64,000 bases of DNA from Synechococcales cyanobacterium CNB (lineage in GTDB: Bacteria; Planctomycetota; Phycisphaerae; Phycisphaerales; UBA1924): NCBI GenBank assembly GCA_030263455.1, contig SZOZ01000001.1, positions 186,001 to 250,000 of the forward strand, read 5' to 3'. The position numbers were made by a program, and so were the translations under genes. The notes beneath the pieces were generated by a model, which saw nothing but the letters and a program-made list of their open reading frames with translations, ran no database searches and had not been told where the DNA came from. Below, one piece after another: positions 45,193 to 53,175 of this stretch (positions within the stretch are counted from its first letter, which is position 1; every line of letters starts with the position of its first letter).

Positions 45193-46668
45193 ATGACGGA
45201 GCGCGACAGACAAGGCGGAGGGCGGCTGGTCGCTCAGGTGCTGATCGTGGAGGACGAGCCGGACCACGCGGAGGTCATGGCCGACGCCCTTCGCAAACCG
45301 GGGCACGTCTGCACGATCGTCGGGTCGGTGGACGCGGCGATGGCGGAACTCAGGGGGGGGGCGTTCGACGTCATCGTGACGGACCTGCGGATGCCCGCGT
45401 CGGCGGGGCAGGCAACGCTCGGCGGCCGGCGCGTCGGGCCGGACGGAGCGGACGCGGGGCTGCTGGTGCTGGCGGCGGCCCGGGAACTTCAGCCCGCGGC
45501 CGAGACGATCATGGTGACGGCGCACGGCGACGTGCCGACGGCGCGGGCAGCGTTCAAGGAGGGGGCGTACGACTTCGTCGAGAAGCCGCTGGACCTCGAG
45601 GTCTTCCGCGGGGTGGTGAATCGGGCGGCGGAGACGGTGCTGCTGCGGCACGAGTCCGGCCCGCTCGACGACTTGGTGCAGCACGGCGGGTTCGAGGGGA
45701 TCATCGCCGGGTCGGAGCCGATGCGGCGCATCCTGCGCACCGTGAAGACGGTCGCGGCGAGCAACATCCCCGTGCTGATCACGGGCGAGAGCGGGACGGG
45801 CAAGGAGCTGATCGCGCAGGCGGTGCACCGCAACTCGGCGCGCGCGAAGGCGCGGTACGTGGCATTCAACTGCGCCGGGCAGGCCGAGAGCCTGCTGGAG
45901 GACCAGCTGTTCGGGCACGTGCGCGGAGCGTTCACGGGTGCGGAGCGTGACCGCGAGGGCGTGTTCGAGTACGCGAACGGGGGGACGCTGTTCCTCGACG
46001 AAATCGGGGACATGCCGCTCTCGATGCAGGCAAAGCTGCTGAGGGTGCTGGAATCGGGCGAGGTCGTTCGGCTTGGCTCGAACGAGCCGCGGAAGACAGA
46101 CGTGCGGTTCGTGAGCGCGACAAACCAGGACCTGCAGAAGATGGTGCGTGAAGGGACGTTCCGTGAGGATCTGTTCTTCCGCATCAACGGGGCGCACGTG
46201 CATCTGCCGCCGCTGCGGGAACGACGCGAGGACGTGCCTCGGATCGTGCGGCACGCGATCGCGAAGTACGCGTCGCAGCTCGCGCCGGACCGTCCGACGC
46301 CGGGGATCACCGACGCCGCACTGATGCGTCTGACAGCGTGCCCGTGGCCGGGCAATGTTCGGCAGTTGCTGAACGTGGTGCAGAACATGGTGGTGACCGC
46401 GCTGGGCGAGGCGGGAGAGAAGCGCGGCGAGGTGACGCTGGACTCGCGGCACATCCCGGACGAGGTGCGCGCGGCAGAGACGGACGACGCCGACGAGAGC
46501 TCGGGTGCGGCAGGCTCGCTCGCGGGAACGAGCCTCGAAGCGATCGAGAAGAGAGCGATCCGAGAGACGCTGCGGCTGACGGCGGGGAACCGCGAGCAGG
46601 CGGCGAAGTTGCTCGGGATCGGGGAGCGGACGCTCTATCGAAAACTGAAGGAGTACGGGCTTCGGTGA
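45193..46668 (+). CDS. Sigma-54-dependent response regulator (NtrC family)
   Basis: 491 residues. The receiver domain has EDEP, phospho-acceptor Asp about 64 (VTDLRMP) and Lys about 131 (VEKPLD). The AAA+ domain has Walker A GESGTGKE (198-205), the sigma-54 contact loop GAFTGA (245-250), Walker B GTLFLDEIGD and the arginine region FREDLFFR. The C-terminal Fis-type helix-turn-helix shows NREQAAKLLGIGERTLYRKL. The receiver carries an insertion of about 15-20 residues right after the phosphorylation loop (SAGQATLGGRRVGPDGADAG), unusual for the fold. No partner kinase is adjacent; the hybrid kinase at 12694 is far away. Confidence 0.94.
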   Translation: MTERDRQGGGRLVAQVLIVEDEPDHAEVMADALRKPGHVCTIVGSVDAAMAELRGGAFDVIVTDLRMPASAGQATLGGRRVGPDGADAGLLVLAAARELQPAAETIMVTAHGDVPTARAAFKEGAYDFVEKPLDLEVFRGVVNRAAETVLLRHESGPLDDLVQHGGFEGIIAGSEPMRRILRTVKTVAASNIPVLITGESGTGKELIAQAVHRNSARAKARYVAFNCAGQAESLLEDQLFGHVRGAFTGAERDREGVFEYANGGTLFLDEIGDMPLSMQAKLLRVLESGEVVRLGSNEPRKTDVRFVSATNQDLQKMVREGTFREDLFFRINGAHVHLPPLRERREDVPRIVRHAIAKYASQLAPDRPTPGITDAALMRLTACPWPGNVRQLLNVVQNMVVTALGEAGEKRGEVTLDSRHIPDEVRAAETDDADESSGAAGSLAGTSLEAIEKRAIRETLRLTAGNREQAAKLLGIGERTLYRKLKEYGLR

Positions 46669-47408: not shown

Positions 47409-49694
47409 TCAGATGTCGTCGCTGACGTCGCTGACGAGGAATGGCTGTATGGTGATGAGGAGGCTGGAGGTCGTGTCGCTTTCGGATCGGGCTGAGAAGA
47501 GGCCGCCGAGAACGGGGATGTCGCCGAGGACAGGGACGCGGCCGCGGTAGAGGAGGTTGCCGTCGGATCGTCCTATGAGGCGCGTCTGTCCGTCGGGCAC
47601 GACGACATTGGACTTCTGGAGGTCGCCGCCGACCGTCTGGTGCGACCAGTCCTGTGCGAACTCCCATCGGAAGATGGAGATGTCGGAGTCGTCGTTTCGG
47701 ATTGCGAAGTTGTAGAAGTCGCCGGTGACACGGTCGAAGTGGAGGGCGGTGGAGTCGGGCCGGAGGTTGGTGGCGGGTTCGCCGAAGATGCCCGAGAAGT
47801 CGGAGGCGACCCAGTTGCCGATGAGTTCGGGCGCCCACCAGACGTGCCAGAGGGTGCCGCCGACGGTGAGGCTGACGTGGATGGCCTGCCAGTCGGTGGT
47901 GATGGCGCTGATGCCGGTGGCGTCGATGTTGCGCAGGCCGGAGTTGGTGGAGAGGTTGTTGTTGAAGTAGTCGTTGAGGCCCGGCGCGGTCCAGACGACG
48001 CGGAGGTCGCCGATCCCGTCGATGTAGAAGAAGTGCCAGGCGTTCCAGGGCGTGACGTGCATGTCGGCGACGGCGGTGGGGGCCGCGGGATCGCCGTCGG
48101 GGTTGACGACTTCATCGAGCACGGTGGCGACCTCGTTGCCGTTGATGTCGTAGCGGAGCGGCGTGCCGTTCTGGTTGAAGCCGGCGAAGGTTCGGTTGCC
48201 GTCGTTGTCGAGGCCGGAGACGGGTGTGATGCCGAAGGCGTCGGCGGCGGACTGGTTGACCTTCTGGGTGCTCCACTCGCCCGCGGGGCTTCGGCGGACG
48301 ATGTAAACGCCGGAATCGTTGGCGCCGAAGCACTTGAGCCCCTGTCCGCCGTCGGTGAGTCCCACGGTCAGCCCGAAGGTGAACGGCCCGACGCCGCCCT
48401 GCTGTGTGACGTTGAATCGGATCTGTCGGGCGTCGGTGGTCTGGGCGATGACGTAGTGGTTGCCGTCGTCGTCGGCGACGACGGAGGCGGAGGTGAAGGT
48501 GTAGACGTTGGGGGTGCCGGGGTCGTCGTCGTCGTTGTCGTCGCCTGGGCTGAGGTCCACGGCGGGGAAGTCGCCCGGCGCGCCGTCGCGGATGAGGGTT
48601 CCGCCGCCGAAGGTGTGCTTGAACTCGGCCGCAAGGGCGGTTCGGTAGTGCCCGGTGAGGATCGTGGAGAGGTCGTCGCCGAGTTTGAAGCCGATGGATC
48701 GCTCGCCGTCGCGGGCGGTGAGAGAGAGCCAGTCCTGGTTGACGGCGTACGACCCGTCGAAGACGACGGGGGCGTTGTCACGGCCGAGGGCATAAAGGTC
48801 GTGGAGCCAGTAGTAGCGGAAGGTGGCGGCGTCGGCGAGTTCGAGGGCGCCGGTGTAGGAGAAGAACCGCTCGCTGGTGGGCGTGACGCCGAAGAAGTCC
48901 GCGAGGGCGGGGGAGCCGGCGATGGTCATGGCGTAGATGTTGCCCGCCAGGTCGGAGGCCTGGAAGTTGGCTTCGGGGTTCACCTTGATTCCGAGCGAGT
49001 AGCTGCGGAAGCCGTCGGAGCCGTCGAAGTCGGCCTGGAGAACGGTTCGGGCGGAGTTGCCGAAGAGGGCGATGGAGGAGTGACCGTCGAACTGGGTGAA
49101 CCCGTCGGCGAACATGCCCGTGGAGAGGAAGTTGTAAGAGAACGGGACAGGGTCGCCGGTCTCGAAGCGTTGCTCGCCCGTGAGGCTGGTCCCGCTGATG
49201 ATCCCGGGGCCCTTGGCGAGCATGAAGGTGTCGTTGACGACGTCGTTGACGAAGCCGTTGAACCAGAAGTTGCCGTCGCGTGAGCCGGGGCCTTCGGACA
49301 GGTTGGTGGCCTGGTTCATCAGGTAGGTGATCGAGACGTGGTAGTTGTTCGGCTCGTAGCCGAAGGAGAAGCCCCAGGGCCGGTTGGCGAAGCCGACGGT
49401 AGTTCTCTCCGAGAAGGCATCGGGATCGGTGAACCCGATCGAGCCTTGGAACAGGTTGTTCGCGTCGCCGAAGGTGAAGTTCGAGAACGGCGTGAGCGAG
49501 CCGCCCGCCGTGCCGTTGCGCGAGCCGAAGATGATCTGCCCGTCGTCGTCGTACTGTCCGAACTCCTGGAAGAAGTCAACAGAGGCGTTGTAGTTCACCC
49601 CCGCGGCGAAGTAGCCGGAAAGCAGGCACCGACTCTCGAGATGTTCGAGGAGCGAGGCGTGATCTCGACAAGACGAGCGTTGTTGCGGCTTCAT
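47409..49694 (-). CDS. LExR-type secreted protein ending in a secretin signature
   Basis: 761 residues. The N-terminus has EHLESRCLLSG (about 17-27), the planctomycete LExRxLLSG leader motif of exported proteins. The body is Gly/Asp-rich, probably beta-structured, with an acidic linker (PGDDNDDDDPGTP, about residue 390). The last 69 residues match the end of type II/III secretins: NVVVPDGQTRLIG, a variable loop, then RVPVLGDIPVLGGLFSARSE, and LLITIQPFLV before the tail. In GspD-like secretins this is the C-terminal part of the outer-membrane barrel. The rest of a secretin barrel is not recognisable, so this is not an ordinary secretin. GGAGGACGCC precedes the ATG. No other secretion genes are nearby. 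Confidence 0.75.
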   Translation of the reverse strand: MKPQQRSSCRDHASLLEHLESRCLLSGYFAAGVNYNASVDFFQEFGQYDDDGQIIFGSRNGTAGGSLTPFSNFTFGDANNLFQGSIGFTDPDAFSERTTVGFANRPWGFSFGYEPNNYHVSITYLMNQATNLSEGPGSRDGNFWFNGFVNDVVNDTFMLAKGPGIISGTSLTGEQRFETGDPVPFSYNFLSTGMFADGFTQFDGHSSIALFGNSARTVLQADFDGSDGFRSYSLGIKVNPEANFQASDLAGNIYAMTIAGSPALADFFGVTPTSERFFSYTGALELADAATFRYYWLHDLYALGRDNAPVVFDGSYAVNQDWLSLTARDGERSIGFKLGDDLSTILTGHYRTALAAEFKHTFGGGTLIRDGAPGDFPAVDLSPGDDNDDDDPGTPNVYTFTSASVVADDDGNHYVIAQTTDARQIRFNVTQQGGVGPFTFGLTVGLTDGGQGLKCFGANDSGVYIVRRSPAGEWSTQKVNQSAADAFGITPVSGLDNDGNRTFAGFNQNGTPLRYDINGNEVATVLDEVVNPDGDPAAPTAVADMHVTPWNAWHFFYIDGIGDLRVVWTAPGLNDYFNNNLSTNSGLRNIDATGISAITTDWQAIHVSLTVGGTLWHVWWAPELIGNWVASDFSGIFGEPATNLRPDSTALHFDRVTGDFYNFAIRNDDSDISIFRWEFAQDWSHQTVGGDLQKSNVVVPDGQTRLIGRSDGNLLYRGRVPVLGDIPVLGGLFSARSESDTTSSLLITIQPFLVSDVSDDI

Positions 49695-49797: not shown

Positions 49798-52700
49798 TTA
49801 CCAGTCGAGCGGAGCGCGCCAGGCCCGGGCGAGGTCTTCGACCTGGGCGTCGAGCGAGGCCGCGGGCCAGCGGAGTCGGCCGGAGAAGTCGAGGACGCCG
49901 ATCTGTTGGACGACGGCGCCGGTGGCGTGCTGCTGCACGATCTCCCGCACTCGGGCGACGCCGAGGGGGGGCACTTCGAGCAGGTAGCGGGACGGGGTCT
50001 CGGCGAAGGCCCAGACGGTCGCCCCGAGATCGTCGGGATCGTGGGTGAGTTCCGCGCCGATCGGTGCGTGCGGACGCGAGCCGGCGATGAGCATCTCGGC
50101 GATGGCGACGAGCGTGCCCCCATCGGAACAATCGTGCGCCGATGCGGCCAGACCCTCGGCGATCACGGCCGCGACCGCGCGGGCCTTGGCGGGTCCGAGT
50201 TCGAGGTCGGTGGTCGGAACGGCGGGGCTGGTCCAACCGCGCCTGGCGGCGTCCGCGATGGCGTTCACGATCGCTGCGGCCCGCTCGCGTCCGACCTCGG
50301 CTTCGAGGCTTTCCGCCTGCTCGCGGCCGACGAGTTTCGCCAGCCGGCGCACGGCCTGTTCGGCCTTGGAAGCGCCGAGCGCGACGGCCTCGCCGAGGTG
50401 ATCCACGATCACCGGCGCGATGCCGTGCAACAGCGTGTCCACGTGGCGGCGGGCTGTCTCCGGGAGCGGGCCGACGACGGACTCGACGCGCGCGGCGACA
50501 TCATCGGCGAGCGAGCGTGCGGGATCACCCAGGCCGAACGTCTGCTGGTAGTGCGACCCGCCCATCGAGGGGGACGTGCGGCCGATGAGGAGCAGCACGT
50601 TGCCGGGTCGCTTGGCATCGCTGGTGACGCACCTGGCGAGGTCGGGCACGATGCCGAGGCCGGTGATGAGCAGCGTCGGCGGGATGGCGATGGTCCGGCC
50701 GTCCTCCGTGGTGAACTGGTTGTTGAGCGAGTCCTTGCCCGAGACGAAGGGCGTGCGATAGGCCTTGGCGGCGTCGTAACAGCCCTCGGCGGCGCGGACG
50801 AGAGAGCCCAGGTTCATGGGATCCTTGCAACTCGGCCAGCAGAAGTTGTCGAGGATGGCGGTGCGGGCAGGGTCCGCGCCGACGCACACGAGGTTTCGCA
50901 CGCATTCGTCCACGGCGGCCAGCGCCATCAGGTACGGATCGCCGCCGATGGCCGGATCGCCGATGCCCGTCGCAAGCCCGGACGCGATGGCGATGCCGCG
51001 GCCCGAGCCGGGCACGGGTTCGAGGACGGCGGCGTCGCCCGGGCCGCGCGAGGTCGGGCCGACGAGCGGCTTGACGACGGTGTTGCCCTGCACCTCGTGG
51101 TCGTACTGGCGGATGATCCAGTGCTTGGAGGCGATGTTGGGGTGGGCCAGCAGCCGCAGGAGCGCATCCTGAACGGACGGAATGAACGCGGAGGGCGCGG
51201 AGCGGGGCGATGAGAACGCGGAGTCGGTCGTTGACTCGGCGCTTGGCATCCACACCGCGTCGCGGGTGGGCATGGGCAGGCCGTCGTGGAGGAAGTCCAT
51301 GGAGAGGCGGCCGACTTCGGCGCCGTCGTAGCGGAGGACCAGGTCTTCGTCGGGCGTGCCGAACTCGCCCAGGACGGCGGCCTCGACGTGCTCCTCCTCG
51401 CAGATGCGCCGCAGGGCGTCGAGATTCTCCGGCGGAACGGCGAGGACCATGCGCTCCTGGGCCTCGCTGATCCAGACCTCGGTGTAGGTCAGTCCTTCGT
51501 ACTTGAGCGGGGCGCGGTCAAGGTGGACCTCCGCGCCGAGGCGCCGGCCCATCTCGCCGACGGCGGAGGAGAAGCCGCCCGCACCGCAATCGGTGATCGC
51601 GTGGTAGAGCGGCTCGCCGTGCTCGTCGCGCGCTCGCAGGATCGCGTCCAGCACGCGTTTTTCCTCGATGGCGTTGCCGATCTGGACCGCGTGGGCGAAC
51701 TCGTCGGCGTGGGTGTCGGTGAGTTCGGCGGAGGAGAAGGTCGCGCCGTGGATGCCGTCGCGCCCCGTGCGCCCGCCGAGGGCGACGATGAGGTCGCCGT
51801 GGCGGGCCTTGCCGCGCACGCGGTCGCGCGGGAGCAGCCCGACGCAGCCGCAGAAGACGAGCGGGTTGCCGACGTAGCGGTCGTCGAACCAGACCGCGCC
51901 GTTGACGGTGGGGATGCCCATGCGGTTGCCGTAGTCGCGGACGCCCGCGACGACCTCGGTGAGCGTGCGGCGCGGGTGCAGGCAGCCGGCGGGCAGGGCG
52001 AACGCGGCGTTGTTCTCCGTGCTCTCCGCGTTCCAGTTCCCTGGGAACGCGACGCAGAAGACGTCCGTGCTGGCGATGGGCTTGGCGCCGAGTCCGGTGC
52101 CGATGACGTCGCGGATGCACCCTCCGATGCCGGTGGCCGCGCCGCCGTAGGGTTCGATGGCGGAGGGGTGATTGTGGGTCTCGACCTTGATGCAGACGGC
52201 GTGGGTGTCGTCGAACGCGACGACGCCGGAGTTGTCCTCGAAGACGGAGAGCGTCCAGTCCACGCCGTCGGCGATGAGTTCGTGCGTGGCGGCGGCGACG
52301 GTGCGCTTGAGCAGGTTGTCGATCTCGACGGTGCCGTCGGGGTGGATCGTGTGGCCGGGGCGATCGTTCCAGTCGATCGGGTCGGCGGGGCGCGGTTCGT
52401 CGCCGTCGGACGCCGCGTGCCCGCGGTAGCGGATGCGGCTCTTGAGCGTCTTGTGAACGCAGTGCTCGGACCAGGTCTGCGCGAGGGTCTCGAGTTCGAC
52501 ATCCGTCGGCTCGCGGCCGAGCGCGCGGTAGTGCTCGCGGATCGCCCGCATCTCGTCGAGGCTCAGGAACAGGTGGGCATCGCGGCTCAGGCGTTCGAGG
52601 TCGGCATCCGCGAGCGGCGTGAGCGTGACGTGCCGGACGTGCTGTTCCACGCGCCGGCCCGCGGGCAGGCGGTCGGGGTGGAACGGCCGCGTGTGCACCG

Positions 52701-53175
52701 CGTGGACGACCGTGTTCGCGAGCAGCCGCCGGGCGATCTCCTCAGCGCGGGGGGCATCGGGGCCGGCCAGGTCGTAGCGCCAGCCGGTAGAGACGCGGAC
52801 CGCCTCGCCGGTCAGCTCGCGGATGGCGTCGGTGACGGTCCGAGCCGTCGGGTCCATGACGCCGGGGAGCGGGTGGACTTCGATGAGACCGGGAGCGGCG
52901 GGCGATGCGCCGAGGGTGGATCGCTCCGCGACCGGGTCGGTGAGCAGCCGCGCGGCCAGGTCGCCCGCCTCAGCGGCGTCGAGCGCCCCCTCGACGAGGT
53001 AGACCCGCGCCACGGCGATCGAGTCCAGCCTGAAGCCGAGCGAGGCCGCATCGGCGAGCAGACGCCGCCCCCGCGGGTCCGCGGCCGGATCGGCGGGACG
53101 CACCTCGACACGATGCACGGCGACACCGGGCGCGGTGGGCGCGGCGGGGGTGGTGGGGGTCGTGGGAGTGGGCAT
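49798..53175 (-). CDS. purL: Phosphoribosylformylglycinamidine synthase PurL (PurS-PurS-PurL)
   Basis: 1125 residues. It catalyses ATP-dependent conversion of FGAR to FGAM. The N-terminal about 170 residues are two PurS-like units (HRVEVRPADPAADPRGRRLL...LLTDPVAE and IEVHPLPGVMDPTARTVTDA...LLANTVVH), like the N-domain of large PurL. The AIR-synthase core shows QTWSEHCVHKT, KVETHNHPSAIEPYGGAATG and DCGAGGFSSAVGEMG. No C-terminal glutaminase domain exists, so a separate PurQ is needed; it is not in the window. About residues 647-664 (TDSAFSSPRSAPSAFIPS) are encoded by a sequence like the intergenic ACGCGGAG repeat. The Pro/Thr-rich N-terminus follows ATG 53175. Confidence 0.93.
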   Translation of the reverse strand: MPTPTTPTTPAAPTAPGVAVHRVEVRPADPAADPRGRRLLADAASLGFRLDSIAVARVYLVEGALDAAEAGDLAARLLTDPVAERSTLGASPAAPGLIEVHPLPGVMDPTARTVTDAIRELTGEAVRVSTGWRYDLAGPDAPRAEEIARRLLANTVVHAVHTRPFHPDRLPAGRRVEQHVRHVTLTPLADADLERLSRDAHLFLSLDEMRAIREHYRALGREPTDVELETLAQTWSEHCVHKTLKSRIRYRGHAASDGDEPRPADPIDWNDRPGHTIHPDGTVEIDNLLKRTVAAATHELIADGVDWTLSVFEDNSGVVAFDDTHAVCIKVETHNHPSAIEPYGGAATGIGGCIRDVIGTGLGAKPIASTDVFCVAFPGNWNAESTENNAAFALPAGCLHPRRTLTEVVAGVRDYGNRMGIPTVNGAVWFDDRYVGNPLVFCGCVGLLPRDRVRGKARHGDLIVALGGRTGRDGIHGATFSSAELTDTHADEFAHAVQIGNAIEEKRVLDAILRARDEHGEPLYHAITDCGAGGFSSAVGEMGRRLGAEVHLDRAPLKYEGLTYTEVWISEAQERMVLAVPPENLDALRRICEEEHVEAAVLGEFGTPDEDLVLRYDGAEVGRLSMDFLHDGLPMPTRDAVWMPSAESTTDSAFSSPRSAPSAFIPSVQDALLRLLAHPNIASKHWIIRQYDHEVQGNTVVKPLVGPTSRGPGDAAVLEPVPGSGRGIAIASGLATGIGDPAIGGDPYLMALAAVDECVRNLVCVGADPARTAILDNFCWPSCKDPMNLGSLVRAAEGCYDAAKAYRTPFVSGKDSLNNQFTTEDGRTIAIPPTLLITGLGIVPDLARCVTSDAKRPGNVLLLIGRTSPSMGGSHYQQTFGLGDPARSLADDVAARVESVVGPLPETARRHVDTLLHGIAPVIVDHLGEAVALGASKAEQAVRRLAKLVGREQAESLEAEVGRERAAAIVNAIADAARRGWTSPAVPTTDLELGPAKARAVAAVIAEGLAASAHDCSDGGTLVAIAEMLIAGSRPHAPIGAELTHDPDDLGATVWAFAETPSRYLLEVPPLGVARVREIVQQHATGAVVQQIGVLDFSGRLRWPAASLDAQVEDLARAWRAPLDW
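51183..51225. repeat. ACGCGGAG-type repeat inside purL
   Basis: GAACGCGGAGGGCGCGGAGC and a second AACGCGGAG copy (51214-51222) match the unit composition of the intergenic repeats at 688-711 and 1790-1960. The length keeps the purL frame open. Confidence 0.6.

What the first reader, a model, noticed from the sequence alone, without database searches (positions are those of the whole stretch)
47412..47618. Secretin C-terminal signature grafted onto an LExR-type secreted protein
The last 69 residues of the 761-residue protein read VVVPDGQTRLIG, a variable loop, then VPVLGDIPVLGGLF and LLITIQPFLV. This is the order and spacing of the terminal barrel segment of type II/III secretins (PulD/GspD family). 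The conserved GGL after the first strand is degenerate (GRS). The other 690 residues show no N-domains or full barrel but carry the planctomycete EHLESRCLLSG leader and an acidic linker. It may be a chimera, a highly divergent outer-membrane pore, or a new surface-anchoring tail derived from secretins.
Basis: partly seen in the sequence, partly recalled or inferred. Interest (0 to 1): 0.75.

Follow-up and report, generated by a model that had tools for sequence, protein, structure and literature searches.

The report
Lectin-like propeller with secretin tail
An exported-type planctomycete protein built around a lectin-type propeller ends in a 60-residue piece taken from the pore-forming part of secretins; the fusion is real and inherited across several genera, but the piece no longer looks able to make a pore and what it now does is open.

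Summary
Residues 694-754 of the 761-aa minus-strand protein (47409-49694) match positions 106-168 of Pfam Secretin at 38.2 bits, above the curated 27.5; alone, the tail finds solved GspD chains (E 7.3e-8). It is no assembly error: two other genomes of the genus carry the same architecture, and four remoter homologues in three more genera end at the same place in a secretin-type or eroded tail (7 of 163 genomes of the family). In six of seven the gene lies beside purL. The rest is not a secretin: residues 398-690 model as a PLL-type lectin propeller (Z 20.4). Related propellers without the tail are about one blade longer, so the tail follows where a seventh blade would come. The GG/SG turn seen in 26 of 26 genuine secretin tails is missing in 7 of 7 members, and tail dN/dS is 0.52, 0.64 and 0.88 in three pairs, against 0-0.16 for genuine secretin tails of the same genomes. 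It is an old gene chimera whose secretin piece was released from pore duty. Most likely it is now a beta-appendage of the propeller; a fading relic or a membrane anchor remain live rivals.

The parts
47409..49694 (-). Whole gene, 761 aa plus stop; LExR-type propeller protein with secretin-derived tail
   Evidence: ORF list and translation; orthologues L009 88% and L010 74% identical
49617..49694 (-). Residues 1-26, leader with LEHLESRCLLSG (LExR type)
   Evidence: Sequence; L19, E20, R22 invariant in 7 of 7 members. The name of the leader type is recalled; no NCBIfam model matched it
48546..49616 (-). Residues 27-383, beta-rich N-terminal domain, no family or fold assigned
   Evidence: No Pfam match above cut-off here; AF2 strands; profile A3 matches 8 of 400 genomes of the order, seven with members of this family
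48510..48545 (-). Residues 384-395, linker with the acidic run GDDNDDDDPG
   Evidence: Sequence; length varies in homologues
47625..48503 (-). Residues 398-690, PLL-type lectin propeller with six canonical blades (my count)
   Evidence: Foldseek E 2.3e-10 and VIA Z 20.4 to PLL/PHL-type lectins; comparison with 14 related propellers
47412..47624 (-). Residues 691-761, C-terminal tail derived from the end of a secretin domain
   Evidence: PF00263; secretin-tail HMM 49.4 bits; PDB GspD match; alignment A6
47496..47537 (-). Residues 720-733, VPVLGDIPVLGGLF secretin signature
   Evidence: Alignment A6 with 22 genuine secretin tails
47433..47462 (-). Residues 745-754, LLITIQPFLV, last secretin strand
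   Evidence: Alignment A6; L745 invariant in 7 of 7 members
49798..52900 (-). purL, upstream neighbour (start approximate), marks the conserved locus
   Evidence: AIR synthase domains PF00586 and PF02769 over cut-off, FGAR-AT linker at 26.5 bits just under its 26.6; adjacent in 6 of 7 family loci
45193..46668 (+). Sigma-54 response regulator on the other side of the locus
   Evidence: PF00158, PF00072, PF02954; also on that side in G001, G002 and G073

Best explanation
Shown: this is an LExR-type protein with a beta-rich N-terminal domain and a PLL-type propeller, whose gene ends in an in-frame copy of the last third of a secretin domain. The architecture is inherited: seven proteins (this one included) in four genera end in a tail at this position. 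Shown: the tail has left secretin duty (GG turn lost in all seven, relaxed dN/dS in the genus, gate and most of the barrel missing). Inferred: the fusion happened once in an ancestor, beside purL, when the propeller came to be one blade short; the secretin hairpin now works as a C-terminal beta-appendage that packs on, or partly fills the place of, the missing seventh blade, and the whole is a cell-envelope or surface carbohydrate-binding protein. It is not a pore.
For: PF00263 match 694-754 over cut-off and GspD match of the tail alone. Same architecture in L009 and L010; remote members L059 (40.8 bits to PF00263) and L072 (19.8 bits, under cut-off); eroded tails in L011 and L073. Of 21 ORFs that match the window protein, two are family members, two are true secretins matched by the tail, and the other 17 have no secretin-tail match at E 10. 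Propeller: Foldseek E 2.3e-10, VIA Z 20.4. Length: family propeller about 293 aa against about 350 in 14 relatives; the best local profile alignment stops 52 columns before the relatives' end. The VIA alignment to the seven-bladed PLL runs from model residue 398 to 755. Tail identity keeps pace with the body in several pairs between genera: window-L072 0.40 against 0.42 and 0.35; L072-L073 0.49 against 0.47 and 0.38. Relaxation: tail dN/dS 0.52 and 0.64 (and 0.88 for L009-L010), genuine secretin tails of the same genomes 0-0.16.
Against: AF2 has no confidence in the tail (pLDDT blocks 26-48 in the full model, mean 48 for the tail alone), so a blade-like placing is only suggestive. The dN/dS intervals reach 1.1, and two of seven tails are not recognised by HMM, as expected of a relic. 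Tail identity is lower than body identity in the genus and in some remote pairs (L073-L059 0.15; L011-L059 0.22 against 0.28 and 0.41). Which blade was lost is ambiguous: the last canonical blade looks slightly more like blade 7 than blade 6 of the relatives (weak scores), which fits an inner blade loss followed by an added tail, hence possibly a closed six-bladed propeller with a free tail.
Confidence: 0.42

Rival explanations
1. Fading relic: a secretin 3' end was fused to the propeller gene long ago and is tolerated, without a specific task of its own.
For: Tail dN/dS 0.52 and 0.64 with intervals 0.25-1.10 and 0.37-1.12, and 0.88 for L009-L010; two of seven tails at or below HMM noise; GG turn lost in 7 of 7; AF2 finds no confident fold.
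Against: A tail of about 60-70 codons stays open in 7 of 7 members; tail identity about equals body identity in several pairs between genera; L059 still scores 43.8 bits with the tail model though the protein is only 24% identical to the window protein.
Confidence: 0.28
2. Membrane or sorting tail: the last secretin strands act as an outer-membrane signal or, by oligomerising, as a minimal multi-chain barrel that anchors the propeller at the cell surface.
For: The retained piece is the end of the secretin barrel domain, with the signature loop and the last strand; a hydrophobic last strand is kept in 6 of 7 by eye; LExR leader and lectin fold suggest an envelope location (inference).
Against: Roughly two strands per chain; the GG turn is gone; strong relaxation compared with genuine secretins; L073 has lost the last-strand pattern. 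Location was not testable here.
Confidence: 0.18
3. Docking strand: the tail adds to the barrel or lip of a genuine secretin ring (type II secretion or type IV pilus) and displays the propeller on the machine.
For: Each genome searched with PF00263 has three or more matches, nearly all to the whole domain; in G073 a T2SSE (PilT-like) and a T2SSF (PilC-like) gene lie on the other side of purL.
Against: I saw no secretion gene among the genes shared beside the gene in the other loci (best 70 matches listed); a docking strand should be more constrained than observed.
Confidence: 0.08
4. Assembly or gene-calling artefact joining two genes.
For: None beyond the odd architecture.
Against: Same junction in three genomes of the genus, and comparable architecture in four others, one of them (G146) held as a single 4.1-Mb contig; no stop inside.
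Confidence: 0.01

Closest known systems
Secretins (PF00263; GspD, PilQ, SctC)
   Same: The last third of the secretin domain, with the VPxLGDxPxLG signature and last strand; 32-42% identical to 22 secretin tails from relatives; best solved match 6i1x, GspD
   Different: No N-domains, no gate, no positions 1-105; GG turn lost; relaxed evolution; body is a propeller
PLL/PHL/CV39L/BP39L seven-bladed lectins
   Same: Fold of residues 398-690 (Foldseek E 2.3e-10; VIA Z 20.4, rmsd 4.0 over 291 residues to PLL)
   Different: Six canonical blades, 11-16% sequence identity in those alignments, an extra N-terminal domain and a secretin tail; sugar binding untested
LExR-type proteins with PLL-like propellers in the same genomes (e.g. 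L074, L039, L044, L040 here)
   Same: Leader type, propeller, and in L074, L039 and L044 also alignment through the N-terminal domain
   Different: They end with a propeller blade and have no secretin tail

Membership tests
Secretin (PF00263) | Sequence match over the curated cut-off (27.5 bits) | tested here: met
   Window protein 38.2 bits. Other members: L059 40.8, L009 26.6, L010 25.6, L011 none, L072 19.8, L073 none. In the six-frame search the stretches of L009 and L010 score 29.2 and 28.2
Secretin (PF00263) | Complete secretin domain (gate and barrel, positions 1-168) | tested here: not met
   Only positions 106-168 match; the four other matches in this genome cover 1-168, 2-168, 1-168 and 3-168
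Secretin (PF00263) | N-domains ahead of the secretin domain | tested here: not met
   No such Pfam or NCBIfam match at E up to 10; residues 398-690 model as a propeller
Secretin (PF00263) | GG (or SG) turn after the first strand of the tail, as in genuine tails | tested here: not met
   GG in 24 and SG in 2 of 26 genuine tails; neither in 7 of 7 members (read)
Secretin (PF00263) | Glu just before the last strand | tested here: inconclusive
   Glu in 22 and Thr in 4 of 26 genuine tails, two of the four being secretins of this genome; family has Ser in 4, Asp in 2, Asn in 1 (read)
Secretin (PF00263) | Multimeric outer-membrane ring | not testable with these tools
   Needs biochemistry or imaging
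PLL-type lectin propeller | PLL propeller fold | tested here: met
   Foldseek and VIA on the AF2 model; pLDDT blocks 58-90 over residues 401-690
PLL-type lectin propeller | Seven canonical blades | tested here: not met
   Six canonical blades by my count of AF2 strands and motifs; about one blade (52 columns) short of 14 relatives. Whether the tail makes a seventh is open
PLL-type lectin propeller | Sugar binding | not testable with these tools
   No assay
LExR (LEPR-XLL) proteins | N-terminal LExR motif | tested here: inconclusive
   L, E and R invariant in 7 of 7, but no NCBIfam model matched; the family name is recalled

The most novel reading that the evidence does not exclude
The secretin hairpin has switched fold: a segment of a membrane pore barrel now forms (part of) the seventh blade that closes a soluble lectin-type propeller, a traceable case of a barrel piece re-used as a propeller blade.
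Probability: 0.2. Interest if true: 0.75.

Novelty: new variant of a known kind. Interest (0 to 1): 0.5.

Why it matters
It is an inherited fusion of a pore-barrel fragment to a lectin-type propeller, kept across genera while losing pore features. If the tail closes the propeller, it would be a clean natural example of a barrel segment re-used in a different beta fold; if it anchors the protein, planctomycetes would have a new surface-attachment tail. It also warns that a Secretin match over the Pfam cut-off need not mean a secretin.

Tried and rejected
AlphaFold2 on the tail alone with 29 sequences gave mean pLDDT 48 and no secondary structure, so no structural claim about the tail rests on it. 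Foldseek and VIA lists are filled by propellers; the N-terminal domain was barely tested, so no fold or absence of fold is claimed for it. The absence of secretins from those fold lists says nothing.

Void rows: the second protein and the query were read in a wrong frame (my coordinates); their empty results mean nothing. The PDB search was redone in frame.

Donor secretin: the nearest genuine tails are 32-42% identical with no clear winner; no tree of 60 residues was attempted.

Glu before the last strand: at first taken as a second lost feature; two secretins of this very genome have Thr there and two members have Asp, so it is not used as evidence.

Split-secretin idea: some relatives have short proteins matching only about positions 1-125 of the secretin domain (L087, L088, L089), the complement of the tail. 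Rejected as partner: G015 has one without the tail gene, and the window's genome has the tail gene without one.

Other grafts: PF00263 in 24 genomes that I picked (147 matches) gave C-terminal-only matches at E below 0.01 only in four members of this family. In 22 genomes from other families of the phylum, G721 was a genuine secretin with a glycine-rich insertion, G723 a neighbouring pair of half matches, and a 43-aa frame in G725 was not followed. The list was cut, so it is not used as a count.

Weak relatives of the N-terminal profile: G101 and G069, G000:C6 and G001:C4 (L083, L085, L086) end in propeller blades; the tail model finds nothing in them.

Empty sites: 20 purL-downstream stretches from other genera hold no match to this family or to secretin domains at E 1e-4. 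The ORFs of five gaps were listed; by eye none is a propeller, but I did not identify them.

Literature: searches (listings and abstract openings only; no paper was opened) showed nothing on this architecture; that is an absence in those six searches only.

Full report
What is there. The minus-strand gene 47409-49694 encodes 761 residues. It begins with an LExR-type leader (LEHLESRCLLSG), has a beta-rich domain (27-383), a short acidic linker, a propeller (398-690) and a 71-residue tail (691-761). Pfam Secretin matches 694-754 at positions 106-168 of 169, 38.2 bits, cut-off 27.5; no other Pfam model matches above its cut-off. NCBIfam secretin models hit within this stretch only. The tail alone finds solved GspD, PilQ and related chains, best 6i1x at E 7.3e-8.

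It is inherited. The same architecture is found in two other genomes of the genus, 88% and 74% identical; these coincide with the named contigs JACTNA010000018.1 (Planctomycetota bacterium) and JAHCJE010000082.1 (Phycisphaeraceae bacterium). A search with the N-terminal domain matched 8 of 163 genomes of the family: seven with members of this family, and G101 (E 6.7e-4), whose protein ends without a secretin tail. In the order, 8 of 400 genomes match: the same seven and G069 (E 1.2e-8), whose protein also ends in a propeller blade. In a class sample, 3 of 397, all known already. The remote members are L072 (G148) and L073 (G146), 38% and 33% identical to the window protein, L011 (G026) 27% and L059 (G073) 24%. 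All end in a tail at the same place. By a model built from 26 genuine secretin tails (22 from relatives, 4 from this genome) they score 49.4 (window), 43.8 (L059), 37.2 (L009), 34.1 (L010), 21.1 (L072), 6.0 (L011, at noise: best of 1400 shuffles 7.7) and no match (L073). L073's tail is 49% identical to that of L072, so I take it as an eroded version; that of L011 is called homologous from its position and its LLVFIAPTIV ending only.

Locus. In six of the seven genomes the gene lies directly beside purL (in G146 purL is read in two frames); G026 is the exception. In G000, G001, G002 and G073 the sigma-54 response regulator lies on the other side. Of 20 purL-downstream stretches from other genera, none holds a match to the family or to secretins at E 1e-4; in five the regulator follows purL at about 0.6-2.4 kb on the opposite strand without the gene. 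So the gene arose or was inserted at this place, or was lost from it elsewhere.

The body. The AF2 model from seven sequences has moderate to good confidence from about residue 141 to 370 and over the propeller, and none in the first 140 residues taken together or in the tail (mean 66.5; blocks 26-48 in the tail). Foldseek and VIA name PLL-type lectins of Photorhabdus and relatives (E 2.3e-10; Z 20.4, rmsd 4.0 over 291 residues). Of 21 ORFs matching the window protein, two are members, two are true secretins and 17 show no tail. The 14 related propellers compared were taken as the last 350 residues; I count seven blades in L040 and L074 by eye, and the rest align with them. The family's propeller has six canonical blades in about 293 residues. 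The local profile alignment pairs family columns 12-308 with relatives' columns 8-306 of 358, leaving about one blade. A global alignment instead drops an inner blade, and single-blade models weakly favour a blade-7-like last blade. Either way the family is about one blade short and the tail follows.

What happened to the tail. Of 26 genuine tails, 24 have GG and 2 SG at the turn; the family has neither in 7 of 7 (my reading). Tail dN/dS is 0.52 (interval 0.25-1.10) for window-L009 and 0.64 (0.37-1.12) for window-L010, where the propeller gives 0.13 and 0.21, and 0.88 for L009-L010; genuine secretin tails in the same three genomes give 0 to 0.16 in six comparisons. Yet between genera the tail is in several pairs as similar as the body (window-L072: tail 0.40, N-domain 0.42, propeller 0.35), while in others it is lower (L073-L059 0.15; L011-L059 0.22 against 0.28 and 0.41). 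So constraint is weak but hardly nil.

Is it unique? In the 24 genomes the Secretin matches below E 0.01 are full or nearly full domains, contig-edge pieces, N-part-only proteins, or one of four members of this family. In 22 genomes of other families in the phylum no graft was confirmed; G721 is a genuine secretin with an insertion, and one 43-aa frame in G725 was not followed.

Reading. The chimera is shown; a pore is not supported. I take the tail to be a beta-appendage of the propeller, perhaps standing in for the missing blade (inferred); a fading relic is the main rival, a membrane anchor the next. Export by the leader and sugar binding by the propeller are inferred from leader type and fold, not tested.

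Noticed in passing
G000:C3:23896-24393 (L001, L096) and counterparts in relatives: Giant open frames with a secretin domain recur in the family and order (4288 aa here; 4616, 5018, 3931, 4660 and others).
   Followed up: no
L087:1095-1856 (+), L088:2059-3225 (-), L089:2091-2969 (+): Short proteins, some with lipoprotein-like starts by eye, that match only about positions 1-125 of the secretin domain, over the Pfam cut-off: the complement of the tail described here.
   Followed up: partly
window about 50230-50511 (-), within purL: The PurL C-terminal part seems to carry about 95 residues that many relatives lack: the query aligns in one piece in G000, G001 and G073 but only in part or in two pieces in the other genomes listed.
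   Followed up: no
L075:1-2220 (-): In G073 a T2SSE (PilT-like) and a T2SSF (PilC-like) gene lie on the other side of purL from the propeller-secretin-tail gene.
   Followed up: partly
L038-L055, L074, L077: A large set of LExR-type proteins with PLL-like propellers joined to varied N-terminal parts (some look like CAP/SCP, peptidyl-prolyl isomerase or FG-GAP domains, by eye only) in several of these genomes.
   Followed up: partly
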